From contig JAQGEQ010000171.1 in NCBI GenBank assembly GCA_034620365.1, positions 1 to 64,000 of the forward strand: a stretch of 64,000 nt of DNA. Reading direction: 5' to 3'. The notes under the pieces are model-generated. The model worked only from the letters and a program-made list of their open reading frames with translations. It was not told where the DNA came from and did no database searches. Of the stretch, positions 3,685 to 60,649 are shown one piece after another. Source of the DNA: Pegea sp. RAD2-039 (taxonomy: Eukaryota > Chordata > Thaliacea > Salpida > Salpidae). Position 1 is the first letter of the stretch. Every line of letters begins with the position of its first letter. A program made the translations under genes and the position numbers.

Positions 3685-4059
3685 TTACTCTTTCTTAGAT
3701 GTTTTCTTGGGTAAGAGAACAGATTGAATATTTGGTAGAACGCCACCTTGAGCAATAGTTACACCACCAAGTAACTTGTTCAATTCCTCGTCATTACGAA
3801 TAGCCAATTGTAAGTGACGAGGAATGATTCTACTCTTCTTGTTGTCACGAGCAGCATTGCCAGCTAATTCTAATACTTCAGCACTAAGATATTCCAACAC
3901 TGCAGCCAAATACACAGGCGCTCCTGAACCAACTCGACTGGCATAATTGCCATTTCTCAATAGTCGATGAACACGACCAACTGGAAATTGAAGTCCGGCT
4001 CGAGAAGAACGAGTCTTCGATTTGGTCTTAGTAATAGCACCTTTACCTTTGGCTGACAT
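3685..4059 (-). CDS. H2A: Histone H2A (left arm, intact)
   Basis: Intronless 124-residue core histone H2A, partner of H2B in the nucleosome. The N-terminal tail begins [19 protein letters not shown]. The histone fold follows, with the conserved [12 protein letters not shown] and [18 protein letters not shown] blocks and the docking-domain sequence [15 protein letters not shown]. The C-terminus KKTSKKE has no SQ motif, so it is a canonical replication-type H2A rather than H2A.X. It is divergently paired with H2B (ATGs 175 bases apart) across a shared promoter containing GACGTCATCGACA at 4138-4150, and it ends at a histone stem-loop. The right-arm copy carries a frameshift, so this is the functional member of that pair. 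Confidence 0.97.
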
Positions 4060-4137
4060 CTTAGAAATAGGAAATATTATAAATAATAAATCACAATAAG
4101 CGATAACATAAGGTTTTTGAGTATAATCTATTTTGCA

Positions 4138-4150
4138 GACGTCATCGACA
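4138..4150. promoter_or_regulatory. Shared H2A/H2B promoter element GACGTCATCGACA
   Basis: Lies between the divergent H2A and H2B start codons. The same 13-mer occurs before H3 (6606-6618) and in the other copies of the array. The core GACGTCA is a CRE/ATF-like site; its role as a histone-array element is inferred from recurrence. Confidence 0.7.
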
Positions 4151-4190
4151 TGATTAATAATTAATATTGCTTATTTACATAATATTAAGG

Positions 4191-4198
4191 TATATATA
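4191..4198 (+). promoter_or_regulatory. H2B TATA box
   Basis: TATATATA 37 bases before the H2B ATG and about 40 bases after the CRE-like element. It is conserved at 18450-18457 and 30048-30055 in front of the other divergent H2B copies. Confidence 0.65.
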
Positions 4199-4234
4199 CT
4201 TATAATTTTATAACATTTGATTTAGACACCTACG

Positions 4235-4594
4235 ATGGCAGGATCCAAAGCGTCTACTAAAATCGTCAAAGCTCCTAAATCGGTCGAAAAAGCCAAAAAG
4301 CGACGTCATCGTCGTAAAGAAAGCTTTGGCATTTATGTTTACAAAGTTCTGAAACAAGTTCATCCTGATACCGGTATCTCTAGCAAGGCAATGAGCATCA
4401 TGAACTCGTTTGTGAATGACATCTTTGAGCAAATTGCTTCTGAATCTGCTCGACTTGCTCATTACAACAAACGATCTACTATCAGCAGTCGAGAAATTCA
4501 AACAGCTGTTCGCTTACTTTTGCCTGGTGAATTAGCAAAGCATGCAGTTTCTGAAGGCACTAAGGCAGTCACTAAGTATACTAGTTCAAAATAG
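4235..4594 (+). CDS. H2B: Histone H2B (left arm, intact)
   Basis: Intronless 119-residue H2B. A basic tail ([19 protein letters not shown], then [12 protein letters not shown]) leads into the fold block [20 protein letters not shown], then [12 protein letters not shown] and [37 protein letters not shown]. The C-terminal helix has the AVTKYTSSK motif that holds the conserved ubiquitinated lysine of the family. It is the only gene of this quintet on the plus strand, divergent from H2A and convergent with H4. A stem-loop follows at 4610-4625. Confidence 0.97.
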
Positions 4595-4609
4595 ATATTT
4601 CATATCTTA

Positions 4610-4625
4610 GGTCCTTTTTAGGACC
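4610..4625 (+). terminator. Histone mRNA 3' stem-loop (H2B)
   Basis: GGTCCT-TTTT-AGGACC hairpin 15 bases after the H2B stop codon. Confidence 0.95.
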
Positions 4626-5305
4626 ACTTATTTCAAATGAAATTAAAATAGTTTCATGCGACGGGTCTAGTTATCAGCTTTTAATTTAACTGTGTAGAAA
4701 AGATTAGTCTTGAAAACGAAAGTTTATGATGTTTTCAATATAAAATAAATTCAGAAATAATAAAACTCTGACTTTAATATGCAATTTGGAAGATATTTTA
4801 AGATGTGAAAGTAAAAATGCATTTTTATTCTTGCGTAAACACCTTACAGATTTAATTTATTGAAATTCTGAGCTTTAGTCATCATATTTTGTTGACATTA
4901 TCGATGTTTTATTTTGAAAAATTTTATTTTTACCAAAATGATTCTTGCCTTTTTCTTTAGACTAATTATAAGTTTTATATTATTTAGAATCTTATGAAAG
5001 TTTTGGAATGAGAAAAATGAAAATCTCGTGAGATATACTTATAACTTAAAAAATCCATACTAAAGTTTTATTATCATATGGATAAAATGGAACAGAAATA
5101 CCAAATACTTAACATCATTATCTTCAGTTTCAAGAACTAAAGTTATACTATAAAATAATTAGTATTGAAATTTTTCATTTTCTTCCAGCAGTCCTTAAAA
5201 ACAATGTGCATAATAGACTTCAACTAATTCTGCACTAAAGTGCCAATTGAATATCTCTTAGTACAACTGTCACAACCTTTCAAATGCTCAGTTTAAAAAC
5301 TCAGT
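4626..5305. other. Spacer between convergent H2B and H4
   Basis: AT-rich gene-free spacer separating two convergent stem-loops. It is mirrored at 17339-18022. A shorter, diverged version lies at 30482-31007. No promoter-like or coding signal is seen. Confidence 0.7.
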
Positions 5306-5321
5306 GGTCCTAAAAAGGACC
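5306..5321 (-). terminator. Histone mRNA 3' stem-loop (H4)
   Basis: GGTCCT-TTTT-AGGACC on the minus strand, 14 bases after the H4 stop. Confidence 0.95.
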
Positions 5322-5335
5322 TTTGATAGAAATAT

Positions 5336-5659
<324 letters not shown>

Positions 5660-5690
5660 TCAAATAGAACAATGTTTACAACTATTTTTG

Positions 5691-5718
5691 TTTATATTAA
5701 TTAATGTTACAGACGTCA
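5691..5718 (-). promoter_or_regulatory. H4 promoter: TATA box plus GACGTCA element
   Basis: On the minus strand TGACGTC is followed by TATAAA ending 44 bases before the H4 ATG. The flank differs from the H2A/H3 version: GACGTCAGCGA in place of GACGTCATCGA. It is mirrored at 16926-16953. Confidence 0.65.
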
Positions 5719-6104
5719 GCGAGTGTGATTTAATTTATTAGCTAAATTATACAATTTTATCTAATTAACAGATTCAAACATTTTTCTTCATTTCATATAA
5801 ATAGCTAATAACTAAGCTTTAATTTGAATGGAATGCTGCTAGTTGTCTTATACTAGTTAGCACTACTTACAAACATTTTTAGATTTAGTTTATTTGTAGA
5901 CTGAAATAATAGCTTTTGATAAATAGTATTTAAAAACATACTTTTGACAGGTTAAAGAAATTTGCAACTAGTCATCCATTAAGAAACTTTTTACGATCAC
6001 TACATGTTAGCTTTAATACAATACTAATATAAATTCCTTAAAATTAAATTCCCATTCAAGGTTTCAGTTAAATTTAAACAATTTGCTTGTTGTCAGAAAT
6101 TGGT

Positions 6105-6120
6105 GGTCCTTAAAAGGACC
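6105..6120 (-). terminator. Histone mRNA 3' stem-loop (H3)
   Basis: GGTCCT-TTTA-AGGACC on the minus strand, just past the H3 stop. The H3 loop is TTTA, unlike the TTTT loop of H2A, H2B and H4. Confidence 0.95.
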
Positions 6121-6136
6121 TTGTGCATAAAACACA

Positions 6137-6556
<420 letters not shown>

Positions 6557-16087: not shown

Positions 16088-16507
<420 letters not shown>

Positions 16508-16523
16508 TGTGTTTTATGCACAA

Positions 16524-16539
16524 GGTCCTTTTAAGGACC
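16524..16539 (+). terminator. Histone mRNA 3' stem-loop (H3)
   Basis: GGTCCT-TTTA-AGGACC after the H3 stop. Confidence 0.95.
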
Positions 16540-16925
16540 ACCAATTTCTGACAACAAGCAAATTGTTTAAATTTAACTGAAACCTTGAATGGGAATTTAA
16601 TTTTAAGGAATTTATATTAGTATTGTATTAAAGCTAACATGTAGTGATCGTAAAAAGTTTCTTAATGGATGACTAGTTGCAAATTTCTTTAACCTGTCAA
16701 AAGTATGTTTTTAAATACTATTTATCAAAAGCTATTATTTCAGTCTACAAATAAACTAAATCTAAAAATGTTTGTAAGTAGTGCTAACTAGTATAAGACA
16801 ACTAGCAGCATTCCATTCAAATTAAAGCTTAGTTATTAGCTATTTATATGAAATGAAGAAAAATGTTTGAATCTGTTAATTAGATAAAATTGTATAATTT
16901 AGCTAATAAATTAAATCACACTCGC

Positions 16926-16953
16926 TGACGTCTGTAACATTAATTAATATAAA
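16926..16953 (+). promoter_or_regulatory. H4 promoter: TGACGTC and TATAAA (right arm)
   Basis: TGACGTC at 16926-16932 and TATAAA at 16948-16953; the TATA starts 49 bases before the ATG. Confidence 0.65.
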
Positions 16954-16984
16954 CAAAAATAGTTGTAAACATTGTTCTATTTGA

Positions 16985-17308
<324 letters not shown>

Positions 17309-17322
17309 ATATTTCTATCAAA

Positions 17323-17338
17323 GGTCCTTTTTAGGACC
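17323..17338 (+). terminator. Histone mRNA 3' stem-loop (H4)
   Basis: GGTCCT-TTTT-AGGACC after the H4 stop. Confidence 0.95.
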
Positions 17339-18022
17339 ACTGAGTTTTTAAACTGAGCATTTGAAAGGTTGTGACAGTTGTACTAAGAGATATTCAATTG
17401 GCACTTTAGTGCAGAATTAGTTGAAGTCTATTATGCACATTGTTTTTAAGGACTGCTGGAAGAAAATGAAAAATTTCAATACTAATTATTTTATAGTATA
17501 ACTTTAGTTCTTGAAACTGAAGATAATGATGTTAAGTATTTGGTATTTCTGTTCCATTTTATCCATATGATAATAAAACTTTAGTATGGATTTTTTAAGT
17601 TATAAGTATATCTCACGAGATTTTCATTTTTCTCATTCCAAAACTTTCATAAGATTCTAAATAATATAAAACTTATAATTAGTCTAAAGAAAAAGGCAAG
17701 AATCATTTTGGTAAAAATAAAATTTTTCAAAATAAAACATCGATAATGTCAACAAAATATGATGACTAAAGCTCAGAATTTCAATAAATTAAATCTGTAA
17801 GGTGTTTACGCAAGAATAAAAATGCATTTTTACTTTCACATCTTAAAATAAATATCTTCCAAATTGCATATTAAAGTCAGAGTTTTATTATTTCTGAATT
17901 TATTTTATATTGAAAACATCATAAACTTTCGTTTTCAAGACTAATCTTTTCTACACAGTTAAATTAAAAGCTGATAACTAGACCCGTCGCATGAAACTAT
18001 TTTAATTTCATTTGAAATAAGT
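17339..18022. other. Spacer between convergent H4 and H2B (right arm)
   Basis: AT-rich and gene-free; mirror of 4626-5305. A net 4 bp of indels separates the two copies, the largest local length difference between the arms outside the H1 deletion. Confidence 0.65.
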
Positions 18023-18038
18023 GGTCCTAAAAAGGACC
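18023..18038 (-). terminator. Histone mRNA 3' stem-loop (H2B)
   Basis: Minus-strand GGTCCT-TTTT-AGGACC after H2B. Confidence 0.95.
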
Positions 18039-18053
18039 TAAGATATGAAATAT

Positions 18054-18413
18054 CTATTTTGAACTAGTATACTTAGTGACTGCCTTAGTGCCTTCAGAAA
18101 CTGCATGCTTTGCTAATTCACCAGGCAAAAGTAAGCGAACAGCTGTTTGAATTTCTCGACTGCTGATAGTAGATCGTTTGTTGTAATGAGCAAGTCGAGC
18201 AGATTCAGAAGCAATTTGCTCAAAGATGTCATTCACAAACGAGTTCATGATGCTCATTGCCTTGCTAGAGATACCGGTATCAGGATGAACTTGTTTCAGA
18301 ACTTTGTAAACATAAATGCCAAAGCTTTCTTTACGACGATGACGTCGCTTTTTGGCTTTTTCGACCGATATAGGAGCTTTGACGATTTTAGTAGATGCTT
18401 TGGATCCTGCCAT
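18054..18413 (-). CDS. H2B: Histone H2B (right arm), K15I variant
   Basis: 119-codon H2B identical to the left-arm copy except that KAPKSVEK in the tail reads KAPISVEK, a lysine-to-isoleucine change at codon 15. The other three H2B genes in the window keep lysine. The fold and C-terminal helix are unchanged. Divergent from H2A across a promoter with the 13-mer (18498-18510) and TATATATA (18450-18457). Confidence 0.96.
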
Positions 18414-18449
18414 CGTAGGTGTCTAAATCAAATGTTATAAAATTATAAG

Positions 18450-18510
18450 TATATATACCTTAATATTATGTAAATAAGCAATATTAATTATTAATCATGT
18501 CGATGACGTC
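18450..18510 (-). promoter_or_regulatory. H2B/H2A divergent promoter (right arm)
   Basis: H2B TATA box at 18450-18457 and TGTCGATGACGTC at 18498-18510, between the H2B and H2A start codons. Confidence 0.65.
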
Positions 18511-18588
18511 TGCAAAATAGATTATACTCAAAAACCTTATGTTATCGCTTATTGTGATTTATTATTTATAATATTTCCTATTTCTAAG

Positions 18589-18962
18589 ATGTCAGCCAAA
18601 GGTAAGGTGCTATTACTAAGACCAAATCGAAGACTCGTTCTTCTCGAGCCGGACTTCAATTTCCAGTTGGTCGTGTTCATCGACTATTGAGAAATGGCAA
18701 TTATGCCAGTCGAGTTGGTTCAGGAGCGCCTGTGTATTTGGCTGCAGTGTTGGAATATCTTAGTGCTGAAGTATTAGAATTAGCTGGCAATGCTGCTCGT
18801 GACAACAAGAAGAGTAGAATCATTCCTCGTCACTTACAATTGGCTATTCGTAATGACGAGGAATTGAACAAGTTACTTGGTGGTGTAACTATTGCTCAAG
18901 GTGGCGTTCTACCAAATATTCAATCTGTTCTCTTACCCAAGAAAACATCTAAGAAAGAGTAA
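18589..18962 (+). pseudogene. H2A: Histone H2A with 1-base frameshift (right arm)
   Basis: Otherwise matches the intact left-arm H2A, but one A is missing at about 18605 (GGTAAGGTGC for GGTAAAGGTGC). Translation from the normal ATG leaves the H2A frame after six residues and ends after about 33 codons. The remaining frame is open from an internal Met at 18687, inside the histone fold, which would not give a working H2A. It is either a recent null allele or a homopolymer indel in the assembly. Promoter and stem-loop (18979-18994) are intact. Confidence 0.9.
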
Positions 18963-29541: not shown

Positions 29542-29916
29542 TTACTCTTTCTTAGATGTTTTCTTGGGTAAGAGAACAGATTGAATATTTGGTAGAACGC
29601 CACCTTGAGCAATAGTTACACCACCAAGTAACTTGTTCAATTCCTCGTCATTACGAATAGCCAGTTGTAAGTGACGAGGAATGATTCTACTCTTCTTGTT
29701 GTCACGAGCAGCATTGCCAGCTAATTCTAATACTTCAGCACTAAGATATTCCAACACTGCAGCCAAATACACAGGCGCTCCTGAACCAACTCGACTGGCA
29801 TAATTGCCATTTCTTAATAGTCGATGAACACGACCAACTGGAAATTGAAGTCCAGCTCGAGAAGATCGAGTCTTTGATTTGGTCTTAGTAATACCACCTT
29901 TACCTTTGGATGACAT
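29542..29916 (-). CDS. H2A: Histone H2A (third block, intact)
   Basis: 124-residue H2A. The tail differs slightly from the left-arm copy: [14 protein letters not shown] for [14 protein letters not shown]; the histone fold is the same. An in-frame ATG nine codons upstream (MFIIFPISK) exists, but the start at 29916 fits all other H2A copies and the family. Divergent from H2B, sharing a promoter with GACGTCATCGACA at 29995-30007. Confidence 0.97.
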
Positions 29917-29994
29917 CTTAGAAATAGGAAATATTATAAACAATAAATCACAATAAAGCCTAATATGTTACTTTTAAATATAAACTAATTTGCG

Positions 29995-30055
29995 GACGTC
30001 ATCGACATTTATACGAATTATTATTGCTTATTTACATAATATTAAGGTATATATA
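29995..30055. promoter_or_regulatory. H2A/H2B divergent promoter (third block)
   Basis: GACGTCATCGACA at 29995-30007 and H2B TATATATA at 30048-30055. Both are conserved although the sequence around them has diverged from the other copies. Confidence 0.7.
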
Positions 30056-30090
30056 CTTATAGTTTATAACATTTGATTTAGACACCTAAG

Positions 30091-30450
30091 ATGGCAGGAT
30101 CCAAAGCATCTACTAAAATCGTCAAAGCTCCTAAATCGGTCGAAAAAGCCAAAAAGCGACGTCATCGTCGAAAAGAAAGCTTTGGCATTTATGTTTACAA
30201 AGTTCTGAAACAAGTTCATCCTGATACCGGTATCTCTAGCAAGGCAATGAACATCATGAACTCGTTTGTGAATGACATTTTTGAGCAAATTGCTTCTGAA
30301 TCTGCTCGACTTGCTCATTACAACAAACGATCTACTATCAGCAGTCGAGAAATTCAAACAGCTGTTCGCTTACTTTTGCCTGGTGAATTAGCAAAGCATG
30401 CAGTTTCTGAAGGCACTAAGGCAGTCACTAAGTATACTAGTTCAAAATAG
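30091..30450 (+). CDS. H2B: Histone H2B (third block, first copy)
   Basis: 119-residue H2B with KAPKSVEK in the tail and AMNIMNSF where the arm copies have AMSIMNSF. The S-to-N difference is shared with the second copy in this block at 32739. Stem-loop at 30466-30481. Confidence 0.97.
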
Positions 30451-30465
30451 ATATTTCATATCTTA

Positions 30466-30481
30466 GGTCCTTTTTAGGACC
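30466..30481 (+). terminator. Histone mRNA 3' stem-loop (H2B)
   Basis: GGTCCT-TTTT-AGGACC after H2B. Confidence 0.95.
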
Positions 30482-30810
30482 ACTTATTTCAAGTGAAATT
30501 AAAAAAAAACTATTTCTAGTCTGCTGCAATTTACAAATTATTGTTGATTAGATTCAACTTAAGTGTTTGTAAATCATTTAGTGAACAATTAACGGTTGGA
30601 AAAAATTTATTCCTCAATAAAGAAATATTATCTTCACATTAATTTTCTCATATACTTTTAACTTAAGAACTCCATACTAAAGTTTTAATTTCATATGGTT
30701 AAAATGGAACAAAAACACCAAATACTTAACATCATTATCTTCAGTTTCAAGAATTAAAGTTATATTATAAAATAATTAGTATTCATCTTCCAGCAGTCCT
30801 TAAAAACAAT

Positions 30811-30985
30811 GTGCTAAATACAACTCATCTAATTCTCCACTAAAGCGCCAATAGAATACCTCTTAGTACAACTGTCACACCTTGCACAAACCTTCAATGT
30901 GCTAAATACAACTCATCTAATTCTCCACTAAAGCGCCAATAGAATACCTCTTAGTACAACTGTCACACCTTGCACAAACCTTCAA
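30811..30985. repeat. 88 bp tandem duplication
   Basis: Two essentially identical copies (30811-30898 and 30899-30985), starting GTGCTAAATACAACTC, in the spacer just beyond the H4 pseudogene 3' end. The matching spacer in the arms (near 5205-5290) has a single copy. Confidence 0.9.
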
Positions 30986-31007
30986 ATGCTCAGTTTAAAA
31001 ACTCAGT

Positions 31008-31023
31008 GGTCCTAAAAAGGACC
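31008..31023 (-). terminator. Histone stem-loop of the H4 pseudogene
   Basis: GGTCCT-TTTT-AGGACC is still perfect although the gene before it is broken. Confidence 0.9.
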
Positions 31024-31037
31024 TTTGATAGAAATAT

Positions 31038-31260
31038 TTATCCACCAAATCCATACAAAGTTTTACCTTGTCGTTTTAATGCGTATATTACATCAAGGGC
31101 AGTGACCGTCTTTCGCTTGGCATGCTCAGTATACGTCACGGCATCACGTATAACACTAAACCTTTTAGTACACCTGCGCTTCGTAAACGTCTCGCTTCAC
31201 CTTGGAATAGCAGTGATACCTTGGATACGCCTTTAACCTCAAAGTACCGAATAGTCTTTA
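31038..31260 (-). pseudogene. H4: Histone H4 pseudogene
   Basis: The C-terminal ~38 codons ([20 protein letters not shown] to the stop) are intact, with the same L84, I87 and K95 as the live genes. Upstream the gene is shredded by several small deletions, leaving short recognisable scraps of the VLKVF, TRG and RRLARR coding regions; the N-terminus is gone. The promoter CRE has mutated from GACGTCA to GACTTCA (31293-31299). No long frame remains. Confidence 0.88.
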
Positions 31261-31332
31261 ACGCTATTTTTGTATTATTATTTGAAGTTTCAGACTTCAG
31301 CGGGTTAATTTGAATAGAATACTGCTAGTTGT

Positions 31333-31420
31333 CAATTTATTTATTTATTACAATAAATGTGAAGGAGGGTGCTTAAAGAGAGCACCTCTCGCTAACACAC
31401 ATTCTCACAAATTAGATCGA
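31333..31420 (-). mobile_element. LINE/SINE 3' tail fragment
   Basis: A short minus-strand copy of the common LINE/SINE 3' end (GTGAGAATGTGTGTTAG to CACATTTATTG) with an AAAT-type tail, inserted in the spacer upstream of the H4 pseudogene. Too short to say whether its source was LINE or SINE. Confidence 0.8.
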
Positions 31421-31848
31421 ACTTTAATTTAATTAATTAAAGTTTGTTATTTTTTGATATAAAGGTTTATAAGGTAATTTTAAAGTCGAAATGTTTATAT
31501 TTCCTAAAAAAGCAAAACTTATGTTTTAAACTACTTTCAAAATGCTTATAACAGCACTCATTCCAAATTAAAATCATGTTTAACTTATACCAGTTAGTAC
31601 TAATTACAAACTTTATTAGAATTAATTTATTTGTAGACTGAAAAAATAGTCATTGATAAATAGTATTAAACAATAGTATTTGAAAACATACTTTTGACAA
31701 GTTAAAAATATTTGTAGATAGTCATCCATTAAGAAACTTTTTACGATCACTACATGTTAGCTTTAATACATTACTATTATAATTTCCTTAAAATTAAATT
31801 CGAAGCTTCAGTGAACTTTAAACATTTTACTTGACATCAGAAATTGGT
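31421..31848. other. H4-H3 spacer (third block)
   Basis: AT-rich, partly matching 5800-6104. No gene seen. Confidence 0.6.
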
Positions 31849-31864
31849 GGTCCTTAAAAGGACC
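31849..31864 (-). terminator. Histone mRNA 3' stem-loop (H3)
   Basis: Minus-strand GGTCCT-TTTA-AGGACC after H3. Confidence 0.95.
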
Positions 31865-31880
31865 TTGTGCATAAAACACA

Positions 31881-32300
<420 letters not shown>

Positions 32301-32350
32301 CTAGCCAATGATTTGAATGAGTCTTCACTCGATACTAATTTTTGATTACA

Positions 32351-32363
32351 GACGTCATCGACA
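32351..32363 (-). promoter_or_regulatory. H3 promoter element (third block)
   Basis: GACGTCATCGACA, conserved at the same distance as before the other H3 genes although the flanks have diverged. Confidence 0.7.
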
Positions 32364-32707
32364 GATAATAACTAAATAACGGGACAAGCTAAATAAATCA
32401 AGTCTGCAGGCTATTAAAGTAGCAAACAGCATTCAGAAATGTGTTTTTCTCTTATGACGTCATAATAGGAAATTAAAAAATAGGACGTTTGATGACAAAT
32501 ATCTTCACAATTCAGAAGTATCTACACTTACAATATTATTATTTTTCTTTTCGATTGATTCTTGTATTTAAGAGATTACAGACACTCACTATCAAATCTA
32601 AATCTCTGTAAAATAATTTAATAATTACACTTACATATTTATTGAGCATTAGATTTCTTCCGACCCGTAGCTTTGAATTAGTTTTTCTAAGTTTAATTTG
32701 AATAAGT
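32364..32707. other. Rearranged spacer with CRE palindrome
   Basis: Gene-free. It contains TTATGACGTCATAA at 32452-32465 in a short stretch related to 3150-3210, but the GCTTCGACCGAGAAC motif that follows elsewhere is missing. Marks the second orientation switch of the third block. Confidence 0.6.
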
Positions 32708-32723
32708 GGTCCTAAAAAGGACC
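32708..32723 (-). terminator. Histone mRNA 3' stem-loop (H2B)
   Basis: Minus-strand GGTCCT-TTTT-AGGACC after the second H2B of this block. Confidence 0.95.
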
Positions 32724-32738
32724 TAAGATATGAAATAT

Positions 32739-33098
32739 CTATTTTGAACTAGTATACTTAGTGACTGCTTTAGTGCCTTCAGAAACTGCATGCTTTGCTA
32801 ATTCACCAGGCAAAAGTAAGCGAACAGCTGTTTGAATTTCTCGACTGCTGATAGTAGATCGTTTGTTGTAATGAGCAAGTCGAGCAGATTCAGAAGCAAT
32901 TTGCTCAAAGATGTCATTCACAAACGAGTTCATGATGTTCATGGCCTTGCTAGAGATACCGGTATCAGGATGAACTTGTTTCAGAACTTTGTAAACATAA
33001 ATGCCGAAGCTCTCTTTACGACGATGACGTCGCTTTTTGGCTTTTTCGACCGATTTAGGAGCCTTGACGACTTTAGTAGATGCTTTAGATCCTGCCAT
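32739..33098 (-). CDS. H2B: Histone H2B (third block, second copy)
   Basis: 119-residue H2B differing from the other third-block copy by I10V in the tail (TKVVKAPKS). The start is the ATG at 33098, giving MAGSKAST; an upstream in-frame GTG would add two residues but is not used in the other copies. The expected divergent partner is the decayed H2A at 33288. The shared CRE-like site has degenerated to GTCGATGAGGTC (33192-33204), yet this coding region is intact. Confidence 0.95.
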
Positions 33099-33287
33099 TG
33101 TCACGGTACAACAGAGAAATGAAGAATTGTGATTATTTTTGCTTATATATAAACAACTTTATGCAAATAAGTTATTACAAAGTGAATATCAAGTCGATGA
33201 GGTCTGTAAATGATAAATCGAGTAAAGGTATTTTTGTTTGCTGTGAAGCTATTATGATATTTCATCGTACTATTAATTAATTGAGAT

Positions 33288-37691: not shown

Positions 37692-40600
37692 TTAAAAGTG
37701 GTCAATGAGGACCGAGACACTGTTACTGCTCATGTCCATATTGCCTTCGCTGGGTTCGGCTGTATAATAAAAAATAAAAATGATGAAAATGATGAAGTAA
37801 ACTTGTATCAAGTGATTTGAAGCAGCAACAAACAGTCGGGGATGGTTTGGAACCACAACAACCATTTGGAGATGGTTCGGAACCACAAAAACCATTCGGG
37901 GATGGTTTGGAACCACAATAAACATTCGGGGATGGTTCGGAACCACAACAAACATTTGGGGATGGTTTGGAACTACAACAACCATTTGGGGATGGTTTGG
38001 AACCACAATAACCATTTGGGGGTGGTTTGGAACCACAACAAACATTTGGGGATGGTTTGGAACTACAACAACCATTTGGGGATGGTTTGGAACCACAATA
38101 ACCATTTGGGGGTGGTTTGGAACCACAACAACCATTCGGGGATGGTTCGGAACCACAACCATTCGGGGATGGTTTGGAACTACAACAACCATTTGGGGGT
38201 GGTTTGGAACCACAACAAACATTCGGGGATGGTTTGGAACCACAACCATTTGGGGGTGGTTTGGAACCACAACAACCATTTGGGGGTGGTTTGGAACCAC
38301 AACAACCATTCGGGGATGGTTCGGAACCACAACCATTCGGGGATGGTTTGGAACTACAACAACCATTTGGGGGTGGTTTGGAACCACAACAAACATTCGG
38401 GGATGGTTTGGAACCACAACAACCATTTGGGGGTGGTTTGGAACCACAACAACCATTTGGGGGTGGTTTGGAACCACAACAAACATTCGGGGGTGGTTTG
38501 GAACTACAACAACCATTTGGGGATGGTTTGGAACCACAATAAACATTCGGGGATGGTTTGGAACCACAACAACCATTCGGGGATGGTTCGGAACCACAAC
38601 CATTCGGGGATGGTTTGGAACTACAACAACCATTTGGGGGTGGTTTGGAACCACAATAAACATTCGGGGGTGGTTTGGAACTACAACAACCATTTGGGGA
38701 TGGTTTGGAACCACAATAAACATTCGGGGATGGTTTGGAACCACAACAACCATTCGGGGATGGTTCGGAACCACAACCATTCGGGGATGGTTTGGAACTA
38801 CAACAACCATTTGGGGGTGGTTTGGAACCACAATAAACATTCGGGGGTGGTTTGGAACTACAACAACCATTTGGGGATGGTTTGGAACCACAATAAACAT
38901 TCGGGGATGGTTTGGAACCACAACAACCATTCGGGGATGGTTTGGAACCACAACAAACATTATTATAACAAAACCAGCCTTCACGCGTTAGTGACGCACA
39001 ATGTGGGAGTCGAAGCTCAACGGGATGTTCAAACTGCAATCCGTGTGGTCCACACATGACAAGAGGTGACAGTAAGGTCTCTCCTGTTAATAAATAGACC
39101 AGTAAGTGACCATAAGTACATGATAAACCTTACAAACCTTTCTCGCGGTCCAGAGGTGGAATAGCTGTGTTGTCACGACACACTTTGAAGTAAATAGATT
39201 GTCGGATTCCTGGTCGGATCGCGCCTTTTGGGATTACTATAGAAACGCCGGTTTCCACGGAGCTCAATACTCCTCCATTGCTATCGAACACACCACTAGC
39301 GGTCGCTACAATCTGTGCGTCGTCAGCGTCTACGTCTTCATCGGGAGGCGGACTAGAAGAGAAGATGAGCAAATTGCGAATATGCAAATGAAGCAAATAT
39401 TACTTGACGGGTGGAGTCGGGTGCTCCAGCTTCTTCGGTTTTGCATTATCGTAAGTATCTACACCGCTGTCGTACATCTGGTCCTTGGACGCATTTGGGG
39501 CACGATTAACTGGAGGAAAGGACGGCTTGCTATATGGTCTCGGGTTGAAAGCAGCTGCACCACTGTGGAGAACAAGTTTCAGTTGATGAGAGAAGAAGTG
39601 ATTGCAGCAAATGATTGCAGCAAGCAGTTTGCAGCAGCTCACCTTGATTGTTTCATCTGATTCATATATCCTCTGTAGTTGTCTTGCATAAATTTGGATT
39701 TGACCGGTGGTGGATTGGAACCATTTGTTGGTTTATAACCGATAGGTGCACGCGAAGCGCTGTTAATATTTAGTAAACAATTCAGCGGTAGTAAGCTTGA
39801 AACGATTGCTACAAATTTGCTAATTAGGCGGAAATAGAAGCGAATTGAAGAAAAGCATCAATCTGAAAATCGAATGGAAGAAACGGTTACTTACAAGTTA
39901 GTTGGTTTTGGCGCCGGTTTCGCAGCTGAGCTGCCAGCAAAACGATTATATTGATTATGTGGTTTTGCAGAGGCAAACCTAAAAGAAACATTTGAAACTT
40001 CAGCCGGTTGTCATGGTAACATTTTTGGCGATAAAAAGTGAAGTTGTAACAAGTTGGTCACCTATTAGTGGTTGATGATGCAGCTGGTGGTCGATTGTTG
40101 GTCGGTCGTGGCTTGTAAGGATCCGACGAGATGAACTCATCAATCTCAGCTCCGTAATCTCGTGCAGAAGGCGATCTATAAATGAAATAGTAGTGAGTGG
40201 ACATTAGGACAAGTTGATGGACTCACTGGTCATGGACAGGTGGTTCAACTGATGATGATGGTAAAGGTGCATTGAATTTTGGTCTGAAAATTTGAAAGTT
40301 TAAATTTGAAAAACCAGTGAAGTGAGTTAGTAGCGAAATAGCAATTTAGTGAAAAGAGTGGTTGCGGACCTGGTTTTGTCCACTTGGGCATATACAACTT
40401 CGGGCTGCATTTGTGGCACTTTTGAGTACGCGCTATTTCTGAGAAAAAAATCAAAAAATAAAGAAATCGAGCAATCAAGCAAGCAAGTCAATATCGTCAC
40501 CGGCAACCAAGCAAGCAAGTAGACCAAACTCAGCGAGCTTTCAATTCGTTGTCAGGTTTGCACAACACTCAGTTTAGTTAGGATGAATACAAGACACACA

Positions 40601-43600
40601 AATAGTTATTATAGATGAACACCGTGAAGTGACCACGTGATCAACACAACGAAAGTTGTCAAAGACGCTGAATTACCAGCAGCAGTAGCAGTAGCAAGTG
40701 CATGCAACATGGACAATTGCAAACAGGTTGCTGTACTTGTGTATACCTGTTGAAAGGTTTTGCTGTGAAAGTTGTTACTTCTGGAATGGTTCGAGTACCG
40801 GTAGCGAGACCGGTAGTGGCAGGTCTTTGATGCATGTAAACACTGTTGAGTTACAACAGTTTAAAAATCATCAATTTCATTTGCTTTGTGACAAATAAAA
40901 TGATCTTCATCTAACTGAAGATATAAAATGATCTTCATCTAACTGAAGATATAAAATGATCTTCATCTAACTGAAGATATAAAATGATCTTCATCTGACT
41001 GAAGATATAAAATGATCTTCATCTGACTGAAGATATGAAATGATCTTCATCTAACTGAAGATATAAAATGATCTTCATCTAACTGAAGATATAAAATGAT
41101 CTTCATCTGACTGAAGATATAAAATGATCTTCATCTAACTGAAGATATAAAATGATCTTCATCTGACTGAAGATATGAAATGATCTTCATCTAACTGAAG
41201 ATATAAAATGATCTTCATCTGACTGAAGATATAAAATGATCTTCATCTAACTGAAGATATAAAATGATCTTCATCTGACTGAAGATATAAAATGATCTTC
41301 ATCTGACTGAAGATATAAAATGATCTTCATCTAACTGAAGCAGACAGACTGGCTGGTTATCAATGTTACAGCTCTAAGCGATTACACAAATGAAGCGGCA
41401 AGAGACTGGCTAGTAGTAAGTGTGAGATTGTCACAAACCTGTTAGCTGCTGGTTTGTTAACTGGTTGTTCCTGTGGTTTGTTAACTGGTTGCTCTGGTGG
41501 TCTACTAACTGGTTGCTCTGGTGGTCTGATAATTGGTTGAGCAGGTTCTACAGGAGAGGTCCGGCTTGCTGGTGGCGATTCAGTAGTTTTGTTCAAAGTC
41601 TTTATATGACTTCTTCACAAAAGATGAACAAAATGACGACACCACATCACATGCAAGTTGTTGATTAAGATGAAGACATACTTGAGGAAAGATTGTGGAT
41701 CAAATCGACCCGGAGGTATCTCTTGGTTGCCTCGAATCTTATGTCGACCGCGTCCATAATCGGAATATGGTTTGGGCATGATGATGGGTGGTTGGGTTGA
41801 AGGTTGTGGGACTTCTTCTTCAACTGAACTCTCTGAGCTGGACACAGGAGCTGGTGGTTTCTACAACGTCATCAGCTGGTTGTTGTCATGGCAACACGAC
41901 ATGGTAACTACTGACCGCTTTGAAGGAACGTTTTTCGCGCGGAGGAGCTTCGGGAACTGGTGACTCGGAAGGAGGTTGTTGAGGTTCATCATCTACATCA
42001 GCATCCAGTTCATCAAAATCATCATCTTTGAATTGTGTCCCAGCATCTTCATCGCTTGATGATGACGATGATTCAGGAACTACTGGCGGCTCGCGCGTCT
42101 CTTTTTTGTCTACCTGTTACCAAGAAGATGTTGAAAAGCGACACTGTCGCTACTAAACAGTGCTTACTCTTGCTGGCTGTGTGACGTCATCTTCCGATCG
42201 AATCGTGGAGTTGAGAAAATCGGAACCAGCGGTAGTGACACTATAGTCGCTCGCGGGCGCCGATACGTAACTGAATTTATCATCATCATCGGGAATAATC
42301 GCTGAATCTCCTTCAATTTCTTCGCCACCTGGCAACTGAACAAACCGTTGAAGTAATATGCAAATGAGATCGCGATGTACTTACGCGATCTTCAGACACC
42401 CACACTGGCATACTCTGTTGATCTTTGATTGTCGAGTACAGGCGTCGATACCAATCGTCACTTCCAGCGGTCAACACGATTGTATCTGCAACCGAAAGTT
42501 GGTTACATCCGGGAAAGCGACAAGTGGAGTCAAACCGGTGAAGACGTAGTTGTAGCCGCGCTGCATCTTCTGTGCGCGATCATACAGCTTGCCCGGCTTC
42601 TTCTTCTTCTCGACGTCAGTACACGCGAGTCGACTTCGAAGCTCCTTGACAACTTGCTTCGAAGATGCTTCGAGAAAAACGACGATGGGGTAAAGCTGGG
42701 TGTAGTTGAGCTTTTCAACCGCTGCTGGCGTGATGTCCAGGATCGCGTGTTTGTCCTATGACGTCAGTGGTCAGTATATACACGACTTGTATCACCTGCT
42801 TGTCACCTTCTCGATGATATCTTTGATAGTATTGAGACGAATGATTCCTTTCCGGTTGGACTTCTGTCCGCTCACGATTCCTTCATTTCCTACACGATTA
42901 GTAGATTAGGGTGTGCTCGTGCATATGACGTCACCAGCACAATTGGCGCGCTTACCCGCAATTTCGTACAAGTCTGAGTGATCGCAAGCCAGGCGCTCGC
43001 GCGCAATATCCGCTAGTGGCCCGAAGATTACGACAGGTCGCTTAAATCCGGCTACAGACGAAAAGTGATGAAAAAATCAAATTAGAACGCGACTGAAAAG
43101 CAACCTTCGCGGAGCACAACGCGTTCATATGCGGGGAACATGCTGGAAGCTACCGATGGTGCGATATTTTCACTTTTCTGGTTCTTCATCATTCGTCGGC
43201 CAATACCACCGCGCGCGCGTTCACGTGATTGTGCCACTTTACGATCTTGAACCATCTTCAACTGTTCCGCTCTTTAATATCATCATCAGATGAAAATAAA
43301 GTTGAAAATAAATGAAATAAATTACCTGCTCCTATTTGGAATTACTCCTCGTTCTACATCCATGTTGTTACGCCCGATACGCGCACCAAGCCAGTATCCG
43401 ACCATTCCTTGGTAAAGTGTGTCACTGATTCGAAATGTGGAGCCTTGTTTGAAACTCATCTCGTGGTCGCCATCGCGTTCATATTTAAAGTGGGTTCGAA
43501 CGTAGAAGCTGTCTCCTGTGCCTCGTTCTAAAATCTTCTCATAAGCTACAAGAAGTGAAGTTGAAGGTCTGGGAGTGATTGAAGCAAGTTGGGGCACCTT

Positions 43601-46600: not shown

Positions 46601-48293
46601 ACTACTACAAAAATCAGTGAAAAGAAAGGAGGTCGAGTCTGGCGGCGCTAGAGTTGAGAAGTTAGCAATAAAAACAAAATCGACGAACCATGACTTGAAC
46701 TCGCGATGAAACGGGTGAAGGTGAATGTCTTGCTGGAAGACTCGCTTCACTGGAAGAGCGGCTCCATGATCTGTGAAGAAGAGATGAAGATATGCTGATG
46801 TCATGGGCTGGTTTCAAACCTTCGACTACGAGGTGGAGGCGAGTCGCGACGAGGACTTAGACTTTCACTGAAACAAATAACAGAAGCTGCTGATGGATTT
46901 GTTAGTTGGAAATATGGTGAAGGATGTTGCAGTGAAAGTTTAAACTTTGTCGAAAAGTTGGAAGGCATATGAACAGGATGTTGTTATTACATTCAAATAC
47001 AAGCAAATATCAGTTTCAATCAAGCTGAGATCTTTTTAATATCTAAAAGAAAATCATTTAAAAATTGATTTGGGTATCAGTCGTGATGAAAAACATTTCC
47101 AAGAAACAAAATGGAACCAACATTTTGTCCTCAGAGGCTTGTATCAACGCTTGACCTTTCCATTTGTGTCAAGGACTTAACAAGTCGTCCAACCATTTAA
47201 CATGCACGATATCATTAAAAATTTATTATTTTTAAAAGAAAAAGAGAATATTAGATGAGCATAGATAAAAAATATGTGTGAAAGATTTGAGAGGATATCT
47301 GGATGATAATTAGATAGATAAATCATAAGTGAAGCTAAAAGTGTAGGTTTGTACTTGTAGTGTACAGAAAGCTTAAATAAATAAAGTAACTACAACCCCC
47401 TCTAGTGGTATCTTTTCTCACATTTGTAAATAACTAAAACAAACTTGGAGTGAAAATATAAACAGAAAGTTGTTGGGAGAAAAAAGGTTACCTTCTAGTG
47501 CTTCGGCTCAAATCGCGACTTCGAGATCTTCTTCTTGGGGAACGATCTTCATTTCGACTTCGAGATCTTCTTCTTGGGGAGCGATCTTGATTTCTACTTC
47601 TTGATCTTCTTCTTGGGGAGCGATCGTGATTTCTACTCCTTGATCTTCTTCTTCGGGAAGTTTCGGTACTTGATCTTCTTCTTGGCGATCTATCTAAATC
47701 GCGACTTCTCGATCTTCTTCGAGGTGAATAATCCAAATCGCGACTTCTGGAGCGGTACCGACCACTTCGCGAAGCAGGAGAGTAGTTTCGACCGCGACTT
47801 CTTGACCTGTTATGATGCGAACGGGGCAGCGAGTCGAGATCACGACTTTTGGAGCGTCGTAAGGTTCCAGGAGGTGGAGTGTCGCGTTCGACGCGTACAA
47901 ACACCTTTCTTTTGATGGTCTGTGAAGAAAAGAGAAATGAGGTGGGCGAAAGCGCGCGCTTTATCATGTACCAGTTCAACGCGGTTGCCACAACTTTTCA
48001 ACTCGCGAACAGCTTGTCCTTGACCCATATTATAAGTAGGTTTGCCGTTGATGCGGATGATGATGTCGTTGACTCTGCAGAGGATCATACTTTGAAAATG
48101 TTTCAACATACTCAGTGACTCACTGAAGCCTGTTAACAGCAGGACCTACAGGAACCACATCTGAGATTACGATAGAATTCTCGCTGCTGTTGAATCCCGT
48201 ATTATCACGTGATCCACCTACAGCTATACCAAATCCAACCCCAGGCGCCTTGTCTAGGGCATAAGTATGTTCTTGCCAAATCATCTCTTCCAT
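37692..48293 (-). CDS. TJP1: ZO-1/TJP tight-junction scaffold (31 coding exons)
   Basis: MAGUK-family scaffold that links junction membrane proteins to actin. Coding exons in gene order (high to low): 48293-48124, 48074-47972, 47919-47492, 46867-46820, 46770-~46701, 45161-45041, 44972-44866, 44597-44414, 44365-44320, 44215-44006, 43907-43757, 43706-43598, 43545-43326, 43271-43105, 43051-42956, 42889-42807, 42755-42536, 42485-42385, 42335-42168, 42113-41916, 41860-41682, 41609-41439, 40438-40370, 40283-40227, 40175-40062, 39978-39895, 39759-39643, 39562-39404, 39352-39138, 39083-38970, 37759-37692. Phases agree throughout and the sum is ~4347 bases (~1448 aa). The exon 5 donor (46701 or 46689) and exon 22 acceptor are the least certain; the last donor (GTTATA) is weak. 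Start [18 protein letters not shown] aligns with vertebrate ZO-1. The protein ends SVLIDHF, as in vertebrate ZO-1. One gene stands for the three vertebrate TJP paralogues. Confidence 0.95.
37836..38962 (-). repeat. 30/27 bp minisatellite in last ZO-1 intron
   Basis: About 37 tandem copies of a 30 bp unit containing GGTTTGGAACCACAACAACC (plus strand), with several 27 bp variants that lack one GTT on the sense strand. It fills almost all of intron 37760-38969. Higher-order structure is visible: blocks of 5x30+27 = 177 bases repeat at 38585 and 38762. In the ZO-1 sense direction no unit contains a stop codon in any frame or an AG dinucleotide. Long frames across it on both strands are therefore a by-product of composition. 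Confidence 0.95.
38970..39352 (-). other. TJP1: ZO-1 ZU5 domain exons
   Basis: Exons 39352-39138 and 39083-38970: [79 protein letters not shown]. The last exon (37759-37692) adds [21 protein letters not shown] in pieces after the intron. ZU5 is diagnostic for ZO-1-type rather than ZO-2/ZO-3-type C-termini. Confidence 0.93.
40899..41340. repeat. 28 bp hairpin satellite in ZO-1 intron
   Basis: About 16 tandem copies of a 28 bp unit, ATCTTCATCTAACTGAAGAT plus ATAAAATG-type linker, in the 1 kb intron 40439-41438. Each unit is itself an inverted repeat (ATCTTCA/TGAAGAT around 6 bases). The main variants are TCTAAC/TCTGAC and ATATAAAA/ATATGAAA, which alternate irregularly. Confidence 0.95.
42385..43545 (-). 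other. TJP1: ZO-1 SH3-GUK module exons
   Basis: SH3 in exon 43545-43326 ([40 protein letters not shown]). The U5/hook exon 43271-43105 is rich in Arg/Lys and ends [14 protein letters not shown]. The guanylate-kinase-like domain covers 43051-42385 ([61 protein letters not shown]). As in other ZO proteins the GUK has no classical P-loop, so it is a binding module rather than a kinase. Confidence 0.93.
43598..43907 (-). other. TJP1: ZO-1 PDZ3 exons
   Basis: Two exons, residues ~497-582: [56 protein letters not shown] and [17 protein letters not shown]. The most conserved PDZ of the family. Confidence 0.95.
44414..45161 (-). other. TJP1: ZO-1 PDZ2 exons
   Basis: Three exons (45161-45041, 44972-44866, 44597-44414), residues ~290-385: [40 protein letters not shown], then [16 protein letters not shown]2 mediates ZO dimerisation and connexin binding in vertebrates. 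Confidence 0.9.
45162..46700 (-). other. Large ZO-1 intron (between linker and PDZ2 exons)
   Basis: About 1.5 kb without recognisable genes or repeats; purine-rich in places. The exact downstream exon boundary is uncertain by 12 bases. Confidence 0.7.
47492..47919 (-). other. TJP1: ZO-1 RS-rich linker exon
   Basis: A 428-base exon encoding [18 protein letters not shown] followed by ~120 residues dominated by arginine-serine repeats of the type [14 protein letters not shown]. An Arg/Ser-rich PDZ1-PDZ2 linker is also known in vertebrate ZO proteins, most strongly in ZO-2. The repeats are near-perfect at the DNA level (~30 base period), suggesting recent internal expansion. Confidence 0.9.
47972..48293 (-). 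other. TJP1: ZO-1 PDZ1 exons
   Basis: Residues ~10-92. Carboxylate-binding loop [10 protein letters not shown], then [25 protein letters not shown] and [14 protein letters not shown]. The first coding exon opens with AAATACAATG right after an acceptor AG, so at least one 5' untranslated exon lies upstream. The intron inside PDZ1 is only 49 bases (48075-48123). In vertebrates this PDZ binds claudin tails; that function is inferred here. Confidence 0.9.
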
Positions 48294-58300: not shown

Positions 58301-60649
58301 TAATCAACAAAGTGAGTACTTGTACTCCAATAATTTGTCACGTGACCTAAATGAACAACACGTGACCTTGTTGAATAGCACGTGACCTAAATGAACAACA
58401 CGTGACCTTGTTGAATAGCACGTGACCTAATTGAACAACACGTGACCTTGTTGAATAGCACGTGACCTAAATGAATAGCACGTGACCTTGTTGAATAACA
58501 TGTGACTTAATTGATTAGCTCGTGTTTGAATTTGATTTCAAGGGGCTAGTGATTACATTGAAGTGTTTCAGCAACAAACCTTTTTTAAATTTTTATTGAT
58601 TTTTCAGCTTCTAATCAAGATGATTTTGCTGATTTCTCTTCTTTTCAATCACCAAATACTCAACAAACAACATCTTCAGCACTTCAACAACCAATTGCAG
58701 CTTCAACAACACAATCTCAACAACCACACTTTGACATTTTTGGATCACTGTCGTCAACTTCCAACTCTGTTGCACCTGCACCACCACAATCTCATCTGTC
58801 TCTTCTCGATGGTTTGATGCAACCATCTACCAACAACACTTTCCCCCAAATGCAACCATCTATCAACAACACTTTCTCCCAAATGCAACCATCTACCAAC
58901 AACACTTTCTCCCAAATGCAACCATCTACCAACAACACTTTCTCCCAAATGCAACCATCTACCAACAACACTTTCTCCCAAATGCAACCATCTACCAACA
59001 ACACTTTCTCCCAAATGCAACCATCTACCAACAACATTTTCCCCCAAATGCAACCATTACAAGTTGGAATGCAGAATCAAGCTCCAGTAATGCAAGCTGA
59101 TATGATGTCTCTACAAGGTGCTACAAGTGCTCCTGTTATGACGCCAAACTTTGGAATGTCAGCACAAACCATGATGCCAACATCCACTGCTGTCAACTCA
59201 TCTGGTAATCTATTGAATTTCATCTTTTATGATTGGTTTATTATTAACTTGCTTCTTACATTTGTCTATTAGCATTTACATTGAAACTCAGTTTCAAGAA
59301 CTTACAATTAGTAATAGGCTTAGAAGTTACTTAGCTGTTTGACTATCTAACTTTACGCTTAATTTAAATATCATTGATTTAGTTTGATAAAAATTCAATT
59401 GCATGAATTCATCTGTATAATGTTGTTGAAATTAAATGTTTATTGGATTTGACATATGCTTAACTCATCATTGCAGTTGCAGTAGATATTAGTTGTTGCT
59501 TGATATTTAATTTCAGCTTCTGTCATCTCTTTATCTACTACCAAACCAACCAAACCAGATACTACTACTGCAATATCCAAAGCAAATACTTGGTCTAATG
59601 TCAAAGGTGTTAATATCAGCTTAGATTTACTTGGAAAACCTGCACCCAAGCAAGTCAGGCCGACTATGAATCAGTTACAAGGTTAATTTTCAATTTTTTC
59701 AGATTTAATTGTGTTTTTATCATCTTGGATTTTGAAATTTTGCTTTATTTCTTAAACAATTTTCGAATATTTATTTACTTAGCATAAAGTTAACTAAACT
59801 TATTTCTTTCAATTCTTATATTTGTTATTATTTAATGGATGCAGCAAATATTGAAAGTTTGTAATTTGTTCATGTTTATGCAGAAAAATATTCCAACTTT
59901 ATTCATTGTAAGATCTAAACAAAAGTGACTAGTTTGTCTGATAATTCAATTTCTTCTACTTCCGTCAGAACTCAACAAACATTTTTACACAAAGTCGAGC
60001 TACTGGCCAAATTTCTAATTAAGTTTTTGTATTAGTCGCTTGAAGTAAAAACTTGTAATCATTTGGCATTTCAATCACAAAAACAAGTAGCAAAACATGT
60101 AACCACATTCACTTATGCTCGTGCTTGATCATGTTTAAGTTTTTGTTGTGTTGTTGATGTAAATGACAGATCAGTTGGTGTTAGAGTAGCTGGCTGCTTC
60201 TTCATTAGATATTTCATCAGCCTCATCATTCAATGATTAACAAAATGATCTTCATCTGATTTTTGATGACTCTCAGGTGGTCAGTCCTTCCCGGCTGCTA
60301 TGGCTGCTATGAATCTCAATTCAGGACATTCATCAATGATGCAAGCCTCTCAGATGACTCTACAAGGCATGCCAAACTCTCAAGTCCACCCAAGAACAAT
60401 GATGCCTCAAAATGGTGAGATTCCTTCAAACAATCTGATCAAAAATGTTTAAAAAATGAAATCGATAAATTCGTATTTTTTTGAGATTCCAACCAATTGG
60501 ATCATTTGTAGTGAAATAATGTTCATATTATTACAGGAATTCAAAATAATTTAGGAATGCAGCAAACCTCAAATATGGCAGCTGGGTTTCCTCCTCAAAA
60601 TTATGGAATGATGCAGCAACAGAATCAACATTTTAATATGATGAAATAA
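55330..60649 (+). CDS. CLINT1: Clathrin interactor 1 / epsinR (13 coding exons)
   Basis: Endosome/trans-Golgi clathrin adaptor with an ENTH domain that binds phosphoinositide and SNARE cargo. Coding exons: 55330-55376, 55432-55633, 55855-55963, 56121-56291, 57063-57168, 57409-57535, 57805-57888, 57956-58019, 58243-58311, 58608-59204, 59517-59681, 60277-60414, 60537-60649; total 1992 bases, 663 aa, all phases consistent. ENTH, residues ~10-150: TNVVMNYSDVEARVRQATND, DDAWGPSGTLMQELARDTFM, KNWRRIYKALLLLAYLVRNG, DEHGKDQGVNVRNKVKDIIS. The marker VDLGAAAHYTGD and the late TWSNVKGVNISLDLLGK block identify epsinR rather than epsin 1-3. The tail carries FGDF and DDFADF gamma-ear-type motifs and no ubiquitin-interacting motifs. 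Human CLINT1 is 625 residues; the extra length is mostly the MQPSTNNTFSQ repeat. Confidence 0.96.
58319..58520. repeat. 20 bp E-box minisatellite in CLINT1 intron 9
   Basis: Eight exact CACGTGACC motifs at 58339, 58359, 58379, 58399, 58419, 58439, 58459 and 58479, with a degenerate ninth at 58499 (CATGTGAC). Units alternate between CACGTGACCTAAATGAACAA and CACGTGACCTTGTTGAATAG types, so the true unit is 40 bp. The first copy reads GTCACGTGAC, the palindromic core of the CLEAR/E-box motif. Confidence 0.95.
58817..59047 (+). repeat. In-frame 33 bp coding minisatellite (CLINT1 exon 10)
   Basis: Seven full copies of a 33 bp unit encoding MQPSTNNTFSQ (first copy FPQ, second SINNT), followed by a partial copy. 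The unit keeps frame and adds 77 residues of Q/N/S/T-rich disordered tail. Near-identical codons show the expansion is recent. Confidence 0.95.

What the first reader, a model, noticed from the sequence alone, without database searches (positions are those of the whole stretch)
37760..38969. Last ZO-1 intron is a sense-strand stop-free and AG-free minisatellite
About 37 units of 30 or 27 bp fill the intron. In the sense direction all three frames are open: one runs from exon 30 for over 400 codons to a stop at 37723, another runs into the true terminal SVLIDHF. No unit contains AG, so expansion creates no cryptic acceptor. Lengths are always multiples of three. Retention would add hundreds of residues of [14 protein letters not shown] repeats and replace the conserved C-terminus. 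The donor (GTTATA) is weak, so retention or alternative use is plausible.
Basis: partly seen in the sequence, partly recalled or inferred. Interest (0 to 1): 0.75.

Follow-up and report, generated by a model that had tools for sequence, protein, structure and literature searches.

The report
Repeat array at ZO-1's last intron
A 30-letter DNA repeat has expanded at the last splice junction of the tight-junction gene ZO-1 in an unnamed animal, and because its copies are multiples of three letters the protein's conserved end survives whichever in-phase splice site in the array is used; it is probably an ordinary repeat expansion, with an unsettled possibility that it feeds variable repeats into the protein.

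Summary
The array is real: 38 units (32 spacings of 30 bp, 5 of 27) on the minus strand, between ZO-1's ZU5 exon and the exon encoding SVSVLIDHF. Two headline claims fail. It is not AG-free: 9 of 38 units end in TTGTAG. Not all three sense frames are open: one has nine in-array TAG stops. Two open frames and 3n spacing are unremarkable: 36% of non-coding 30-mers from the sampled DNA, taken as circular units, have two or more open frames. The weak donor is confirmed more strongly than claimed: TTT|GTTATA scores below all 36 introns I curated (8 checked by alignment or profile, the rest by eye) and in the lowest 15% of sampled GTs. That undermines the assumed 1,210-bp intron itself. Of 146 GTs across the exon end and array, 131 share the phase that keeps the true C-terminus, so the array may act as a string of interchangeable 5' splice sites feeding one good acceptor, as reported for human IFI6. 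Without RNA data, intronic, partly exonic and wholly exonic models remain open. At least three other introns in the sampled DNA hold arrays. Interest is modest.

The parts
38970..39083 (-). ZO-1 exon preceding the array (end of ZU5 domain, ...[15 protein letters not shown])
   Evidence: splice model; Pfam ZU5 match ends at the W of GWF; read on into the array, only its first 36 residues (to that W) match ZU5, profile positions 54-89 of 97
   Evidence: donor scores below all 36 curated donors
37826..38961 (-). minisatellite: 38 units of 30/27 bp, 177-bp higher-order repeat
   Evidence: the 38 hits listed for a 23-base unit pattern (up to 3 mismatches) in the 105.7-Mb assembly all lie here
38481..38942 (-). 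most homogenised part: exact 177-bp periodicity (285-base exact run at lag 177)
37853..38948 (-). span of 55 in-array phase-1 GTs whose donor score is at least that of the lowest curated donor (58 in the scanned stretch, the other three being 38999 and 38984 in exon 30 and 37802 beyond the array)
   Evidence: products of donors 38927, 38102, 38012, 37892 and 37862 all end SVSVLIDHF
37973..38863 (-). span of the nine TTGTAG sites (potential acceptors in phase with the terminal exon; TAG stops in frame 1)
37760..37829 (-). alternative short intron (70 bp, 26% GC), donor TTT|GTTGCT, same acceptor and phase
   Evidence: chosen by a crude gene finder; GC; hexamer GTTGCT is the donor of the 53-bp ZO-1 intron 43104-43052; but in its 9-base context it too scores below all 36 donors
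37692..37759 (-). terminal exon, ...[21 protein letters not shown] stop

Best explanation
A minisatellite has expanded locally, by repeated duplication including a recent 177-bp block, at the last exon-intron junction of ZO-1. Its units are multiples of three and nearly all its GTs lie in one phase (131 of 146 in the scanned stretch, codons of the form NGT). Joining any of those GTs that lie beyond the GWF codons to the one good acceptor at 37760 therefore should yield a ZO-1 that keeps its conserved end SVSVLIDHF. The first possible donor is very poor, so I think it most likely that at least some mature transcripts use 5' splice sites inside the array and carry a variable number of [14 protein letters not shown] units within the ZU5 region, as the IFI6 minisatellite is reported to do for its transcript. 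Shown: the array, its phase lock, the donor ranking, and that five such isoforms read through to the true end. Inferred: that in-array donors are used.
For: In-array phase-1 GTs such as ATG|GTTGTT and ATG|GTTATT score 2.58 and 5.19, and 58 of 131 phase-1 GTs in the scanned stretch reach the lowest curated donor. Spliced products from donors 38927, 38102, 38012, 37892 and 37862 all end SVSVLIDHF. The acceptor is strong (9.42; range -4.0 to 10.8). Curated introns are short (median 66.5 bp, longest 596, n=36), so 1,210 bp would be exceptional. Array GC is 0.474, against 0.51 in two neighbouring exons and 0.32-0.33 in two neighbouring introns. Its unit scores as coding-like (78th percentile of coding 30-mers; 0.8% of non-coding 30-mers score as high). 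Precedent: a passage in PMC4526556 says IFI6 isoforms use repeat units as splice donors.
Against: The coding-like score is not frame-specific: all three sense frames, and one antisense frame more so, score well, so it may be only base composition. In-array donors are ordinary GTs: none of the 131 reaches the median curated donor, while 57% of random GTs reach the lowest curated score and 34% reach 2.58. All 13 phase-0 GTs of the stretch reach the lowest curated score and the best donors of all, AAT|GTTTGT and ACT|GTTTGT, are phase 0; the one translated (37833) loses the C-terminus. At least three other introns contain arrays: ZO-1 41438-40843, a myosin-head gene in L050, and an epsin-like gene at 58312-58607. 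By my reading of the units, only 2 of 9 variant types are synonymous in the exon frame, so there is no sign of purifying selection. 28 of the 36 introns were curated by eye, which may favour consensus-like donors. No RNA evidence was available.
Confidence: 0.42

Rival explanations
1. The array is wholly intronic and inert: the 1,210-bp intron is removed constitutively from the weak donor at 38969, and the 3n length and open frames are by-products of the unit's sequence.
For: Restores a ZU5 tail of near-human length. Pfam ZU5 match ends one residue before the junction. At least three other introns of the sampled DNA carry arrays, one of them with a higher-order repeat too (period 32, higher-order 93). 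Open frames are expected by chance.
Against: Donor below all 36 curated donors and in the lowest 15% of sampled GTs. Length twice that of the longest curated intron (596). GC of the interval 0.46 against 0.25 for non-coding DNA. The three arrays I place in introns have periods 28, 32 and 40, none a multiple of three, while the three I read as coding have 39, 24 and 33; the arrays in L037, L038 and L040 were left out of this comparison because their placement was not determined.
Confidence: 0.35
2. The array is essentially all coding: exon 30 continues to a donor near its 3' end (37829, 37853, 37862 or 37892) and the last intron is 70-133 bp, so ZO-1 carries some 360-380 residues of repeat at the end of ZU5 in every transcript.
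For: Exon frame open through all 38 units. Crude gene finder chose 37829. Intron length then typical. GC and 3n period like coding arrays.
Against: 37829 scores below all curated donors. It would put a Cys-rich insert of hundreds of residues into a small domain whose end is conserved. The gene finder over-predicted introns badly (172 in that chain) and went on to splice out the true C-terminus and stop, so its choice is weak evidence.
Confidence: 0.12
3. Regulated intron retention: unspliced messages add about 414 codons and end at 37723 instead of in SVLIDHF.
For: Exon frame open to 37723; weak donor; the new stop lies in the last exon, 31 bases before the normal one.
Against: No positive evidence; it destroys a C-terminus identical to human ZO-1 over its last eight residues (VSVLIDHF); partial splicing at in-array sites avoids that.
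Confidence: 0.06

Closest known systems
[quoted passage not shown] seen here only through a passage and reference in PMC4526556 and a passage and reference in PMC3618361)
   Same: Tandem repeat whose units are reported to serve as alternative 5' splice sites
   Different: Different gene, unit and organism; here donor use is predicted, not shown; here units preserve the reading frame into a conserved C-terminus
ABCA7 intronic VNTR that affects splicing (PMC5954066, seen as title and start of abstract in a search listing)
   Same: Minisatellite suspected of acting on splicing of its own transcript
   Different: Any influence here would come through splice sites in the units themselves; no population or expression data here
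C. [quoted passage not shown]
   Same: Invertebrate minisatellite in introns with possible splicing role
   Different: CeRep25B is a dispersed palindromic 24-mer; this unit was found at one locus only, and its folding energy is not unusual

Membership tests
ZO-1 / TJP scaffold (MAGUK with ZU5) | ZU5 domain at the C-terminus | tested here: met
   Pfam ZU5 E=1.4e-31; human ZO-1 structures 2kxs/2kxr best PDB matches, E=8.1e-49 and 1.4e-46
ZO-1 / TJP scaffold (MAGUK with ZU5) | PDZ and SH3-guanylate-kinase modules | tested here: met
   first PDZ E=1.5e-14, Guanylate_kin E=7.1e-11, SH3_2 E=4.9e-5; human ZO-1 3shw E=2e-94; other PDZ domains seen by eye only
IFI6-type splice-donor minisatellite | repeat units carry GT dinucleotides in the splicing phase of the junction | tested here: met
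   131 of 146 GTs between 39010 and 37801 are phase 1
IFI6-type splice-donor minisatellite | unit donors resemble real donors of the organism | tested here: inconclusive
   58 of 131 reach the lowest of 36 curated donors, none reaches the median; 57% of random GTs also reach the lowest
IFI6-type splice-donor minisatellite | units used as donors in mRNA | not testable with these tools
   no transcript data
inert intronic minisatellite | whole array lies between a functional donor and acceptor | tested here: inconclusive
   acceptor strong, donor weaker than all 36 curated donors

The most novel reading that the evidence does not exclude
A self-similar, phase-locked ladder of 5' splice sites lets a tight-junction scaffold vary the length of an insert in its ZU5 domain. 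Each unit would be both coding repeat and donor, and nine units also carry an in-phase acceptor (TTGTAG), so copy-number change between individuals would change the isoform spectrum without losing the conserved C-terminus. The insert falls between the conserved GW and the conserved end; ZO-1's ZU5 is described as lacking two strands relative to its homologues (PMC6928914, passage), but that these map to this spot was not tested.
Probability: 0.2. Interest if true: 0.6.

Novelty: new member of a known kind. Interest (0 to 1): 0.33.

Why it matters
If units are spliced in, this is a case of a repeat array that can change copy number freely because 3n units keep its in-phase donors in phase: a concrete route by which a minisatellite at an exon edge becomes tolerated protein variation. 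If the array is inert, it is a caution that open frames and 3n spacing in a tandem repeat carry little information, and that an automatic gene caller may count such an intron as coding.

Tried and rejected
Hairpin or compaction role: the unit contains inverted repeats (AACCAT/ATGGTT), but arrays built from its consensus fold no better than arrays of dinucleotide-shuffled units (z=0.12; a variant unit z=-1.1). In one search the last two bases of the unit from contig C1 were assumed, so that row is approximate.

Dispersed repeat family: the unit pattern's 38 listed hits are all at this locus, and the DNA search, which skips common words, returns only itself. The arm pattern ACAACCA-N4-20-TGGTTGT gives 46 hits per strand against 23 for its reversed control, 20 of the 46 in two arrays. 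No family was established.

Coding signal by codon usage: not frame-specific. Crude Viterbi gene finder: over-predicts (80 chains of 300 bases or more and 3,745 introns under 200 bp in its last round) and spliced out the true ZO-1 end; used only as a pointer. A stricter composition screen gave 21 candidate introns in the sample, five of them on the gene's strand in the window, too few to use.

Other junctions: GC-AG donor at 38978 and GT donors at 38999 and 38984 keep the phase but would remove the GW that the Pfam ZU5 match includes, so they are disfavoured.

Organism: not identified. The nematode SL1 sequence (one mismatch allowed) and a rotifer leader (two allowed), both recalled, were not found. 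SL2 and COX1 models found nothing, the SL2 control being uninformative. Literature for an exonised minisatellite with intron retention: none listed under that one search. A search on stop-free introns failed on its arguments and was not repeated. No scan of the viral, metagenome or prokaryote collections for relatives was run.

Full report
WHAT IS THERE. The window is the first 64 kb of contig C5 of an unnamed 105.7-Mb eukaryote assembly. On its minus strand lies a ZO-1 gene: a PDZ domain, SH3 and guanylate kinase (best match among solved structures human ZO-1) and a C-terminal ZU5 domain. Between the exon ending in GWF (39083-38970) and the terminal exon (37759-37692) lie 1,210 bases, almost filled by a tandem array at 38961-37826.

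THE ARRAY. It has 38 units; the 37 start-to-start spacings are 30 bp (32) or 27 bp (5). A 177-bp higher-order unit is visible to TRF, and a 285-base exact run at lag 177 from 38942 means a 462-base stretch of perfect 177-bp periodicity, a sign of recent duplication. The 38 genome-wide hits listed for the unit pattern, with up to three mismatches, all lie here.

Nine of 38 units end in TTGTAG, so the array is not AG-free, and in one sense frame these are nine TAG stops. Two frames are open. That is not surprising: of 18,645 non-coding 30-mers of the sampled DNA taken as circular units, 36% have two or three open frames and 21% lack AG. Among the eight arrays, a 10-bp array (L037) and a 33-bp array (58817-59057) have three open frames and no AG on one strand. 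The interval is 3n+1 long, so retention leaves the true frame.

IS IT AN INTRON? I curated 36 introns: 12 of ZO-1 and 13 of a myosin-head gene, ten of an epsin-like gene and one more of ZO-1 added. Eight are covered by an alignment or profile match; 28 rest on my eye, which may favour consensus-like donors. Median length is 66.5, the longest 596. Leave-one-out donor scores range from 0.9 to 10.7. The weak-donor claim therefore holds, and more strongly than stated.

THE PHASE LOCK. Because units are 3n and most of their GTs sit in NGT codons of the exon frame, 131 of 146 GTs from 39010 to 37801 are in phase 1, the phase that joins correctly to the acceptor at 37760; 58 of these reach the lowest curated donor, none the median. 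Five such in-array donors were spliced in silico and all products end SVSVLIDHF. The nine TTGTAG sites, scoring 5.13 within the acceptor range, also lead in frame to SVLIDHF when joined to exon 30. All 13 phase-0 GTs reach the lowest curated donor too, and they include the best donors by score, AAT|GTTTGT and ACT|GTTTGT; the one translated (37833) loses the C-terminus. The phase-1 in-array donors are ordinary by genomic standards: 57% of random GTs reach 0.9 and 34% reach 2.58.

EVIDENCE EACH WAY. For at least part of the array being exonic: donor ranking; GC 0.474 against 0.51 in two neighbouring exons and 0.32-0.33 in two introns; a unit that only 0.8% of non-coding 30-mers match in coding score (but in every sense frame alike); and a 3n period. 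The three arrays that I read as coding have periods 39, 24 and 33, the three that I place in introns 28, 40 and 32; arrays in L037, L038 and L040 were left out because their placement was not determined. For a wholly intronic array: the spliced tail has 31 residues after LPHC against 30 in human; the Pfam ZU5 match runs to the W just before the junction; at least three other introns hold arrays; and by my reading only two of nine variant types in the units are synonymous in the exon frame. The translated array has no match among solved structures in the exon frame or in the second open frame.

MECHANISM. Most likely the array grew by repeated duplication at or beside the junction, and its 3n units made growth harmless to the C-terminus. 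I give 0.42 to some in-array donor use, 0.35 to a wholly intronic array, 0.12 to a wholly coding one and 0.06 to regulated retention. A folding role was tested and dropped.

KNOWN RELATIVES. The nearest precedent is the IFI6 minisatellite whose repeat units are reported to serve as splice donors (passage in PMC4526556; the original 1995 paper is not held). An intronic VNTR affecting ABCA7 splicing (PMC5954066, listing only) and the C. elegans CeRep25B minisatellite (PMC4039745, abstract and one section) are broader parallels. ZO-1's ZU5 is described as lacking two strands relative to its homologues (PMC6928914, passages).

VERDICT. A real, long array at a conserved junction, partly mis-described, with an open splicing question that one RT-PCR would answer. 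Minisatellites recur in the sampled DNA of this genome, and the striking properties claimed are mostly consequences of repeating one 30-bp unit.

Noticed in passing
window 40895-41340 (minus-strand ZO-1 intron 41438-40843): A second ZO-1 intron array, 28 bp x 16 at 96% match, unit with inverted repeat ATCTTCA/TGAAGAT.
   Followed up: partly
L050 2211-2494: A 541-bp intron of a myosin-head gene carries a 32-bp array with a 93-bp higher-order period (29-bp variants by eye), analogous in build to the ZO-1 array.
   Followed up: partly
window 58312-58607 and 58817-59057: Epsin-like gene (ENTH sequence recognised by eye) with a 40-bp array in an intron and a 33-bp array read as coding (MQPSTNNTFSQ) a little downstream.
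   Followed up: partly
window 47516-47659 and 41446-41539: Arrays read as coding in ZO-1 itself: 39-bp units encoding [13 protein letters not shown] repeats (SR-protein-like) and 24-bp units encoding PPEQPVNK repeats.
   Followed up: no
window 3685-6556, 16088-18959, 29542-33158: Histone genes in repeated clusters (H3, H4, H2A, H2B read by eye), one with an Rfam histone 3' stem-loop at 31869-31824.
   Followed up: no
L038 1308-4555: 3.2-kb array of a 14-bp unit GTTAGAAACTGGTT; ACAACCAG/CTGGTTGT is about 37-fold over expectation in the sampled DNA and occurs in 11 of the 20 sampled sequences.
   Followed up: no
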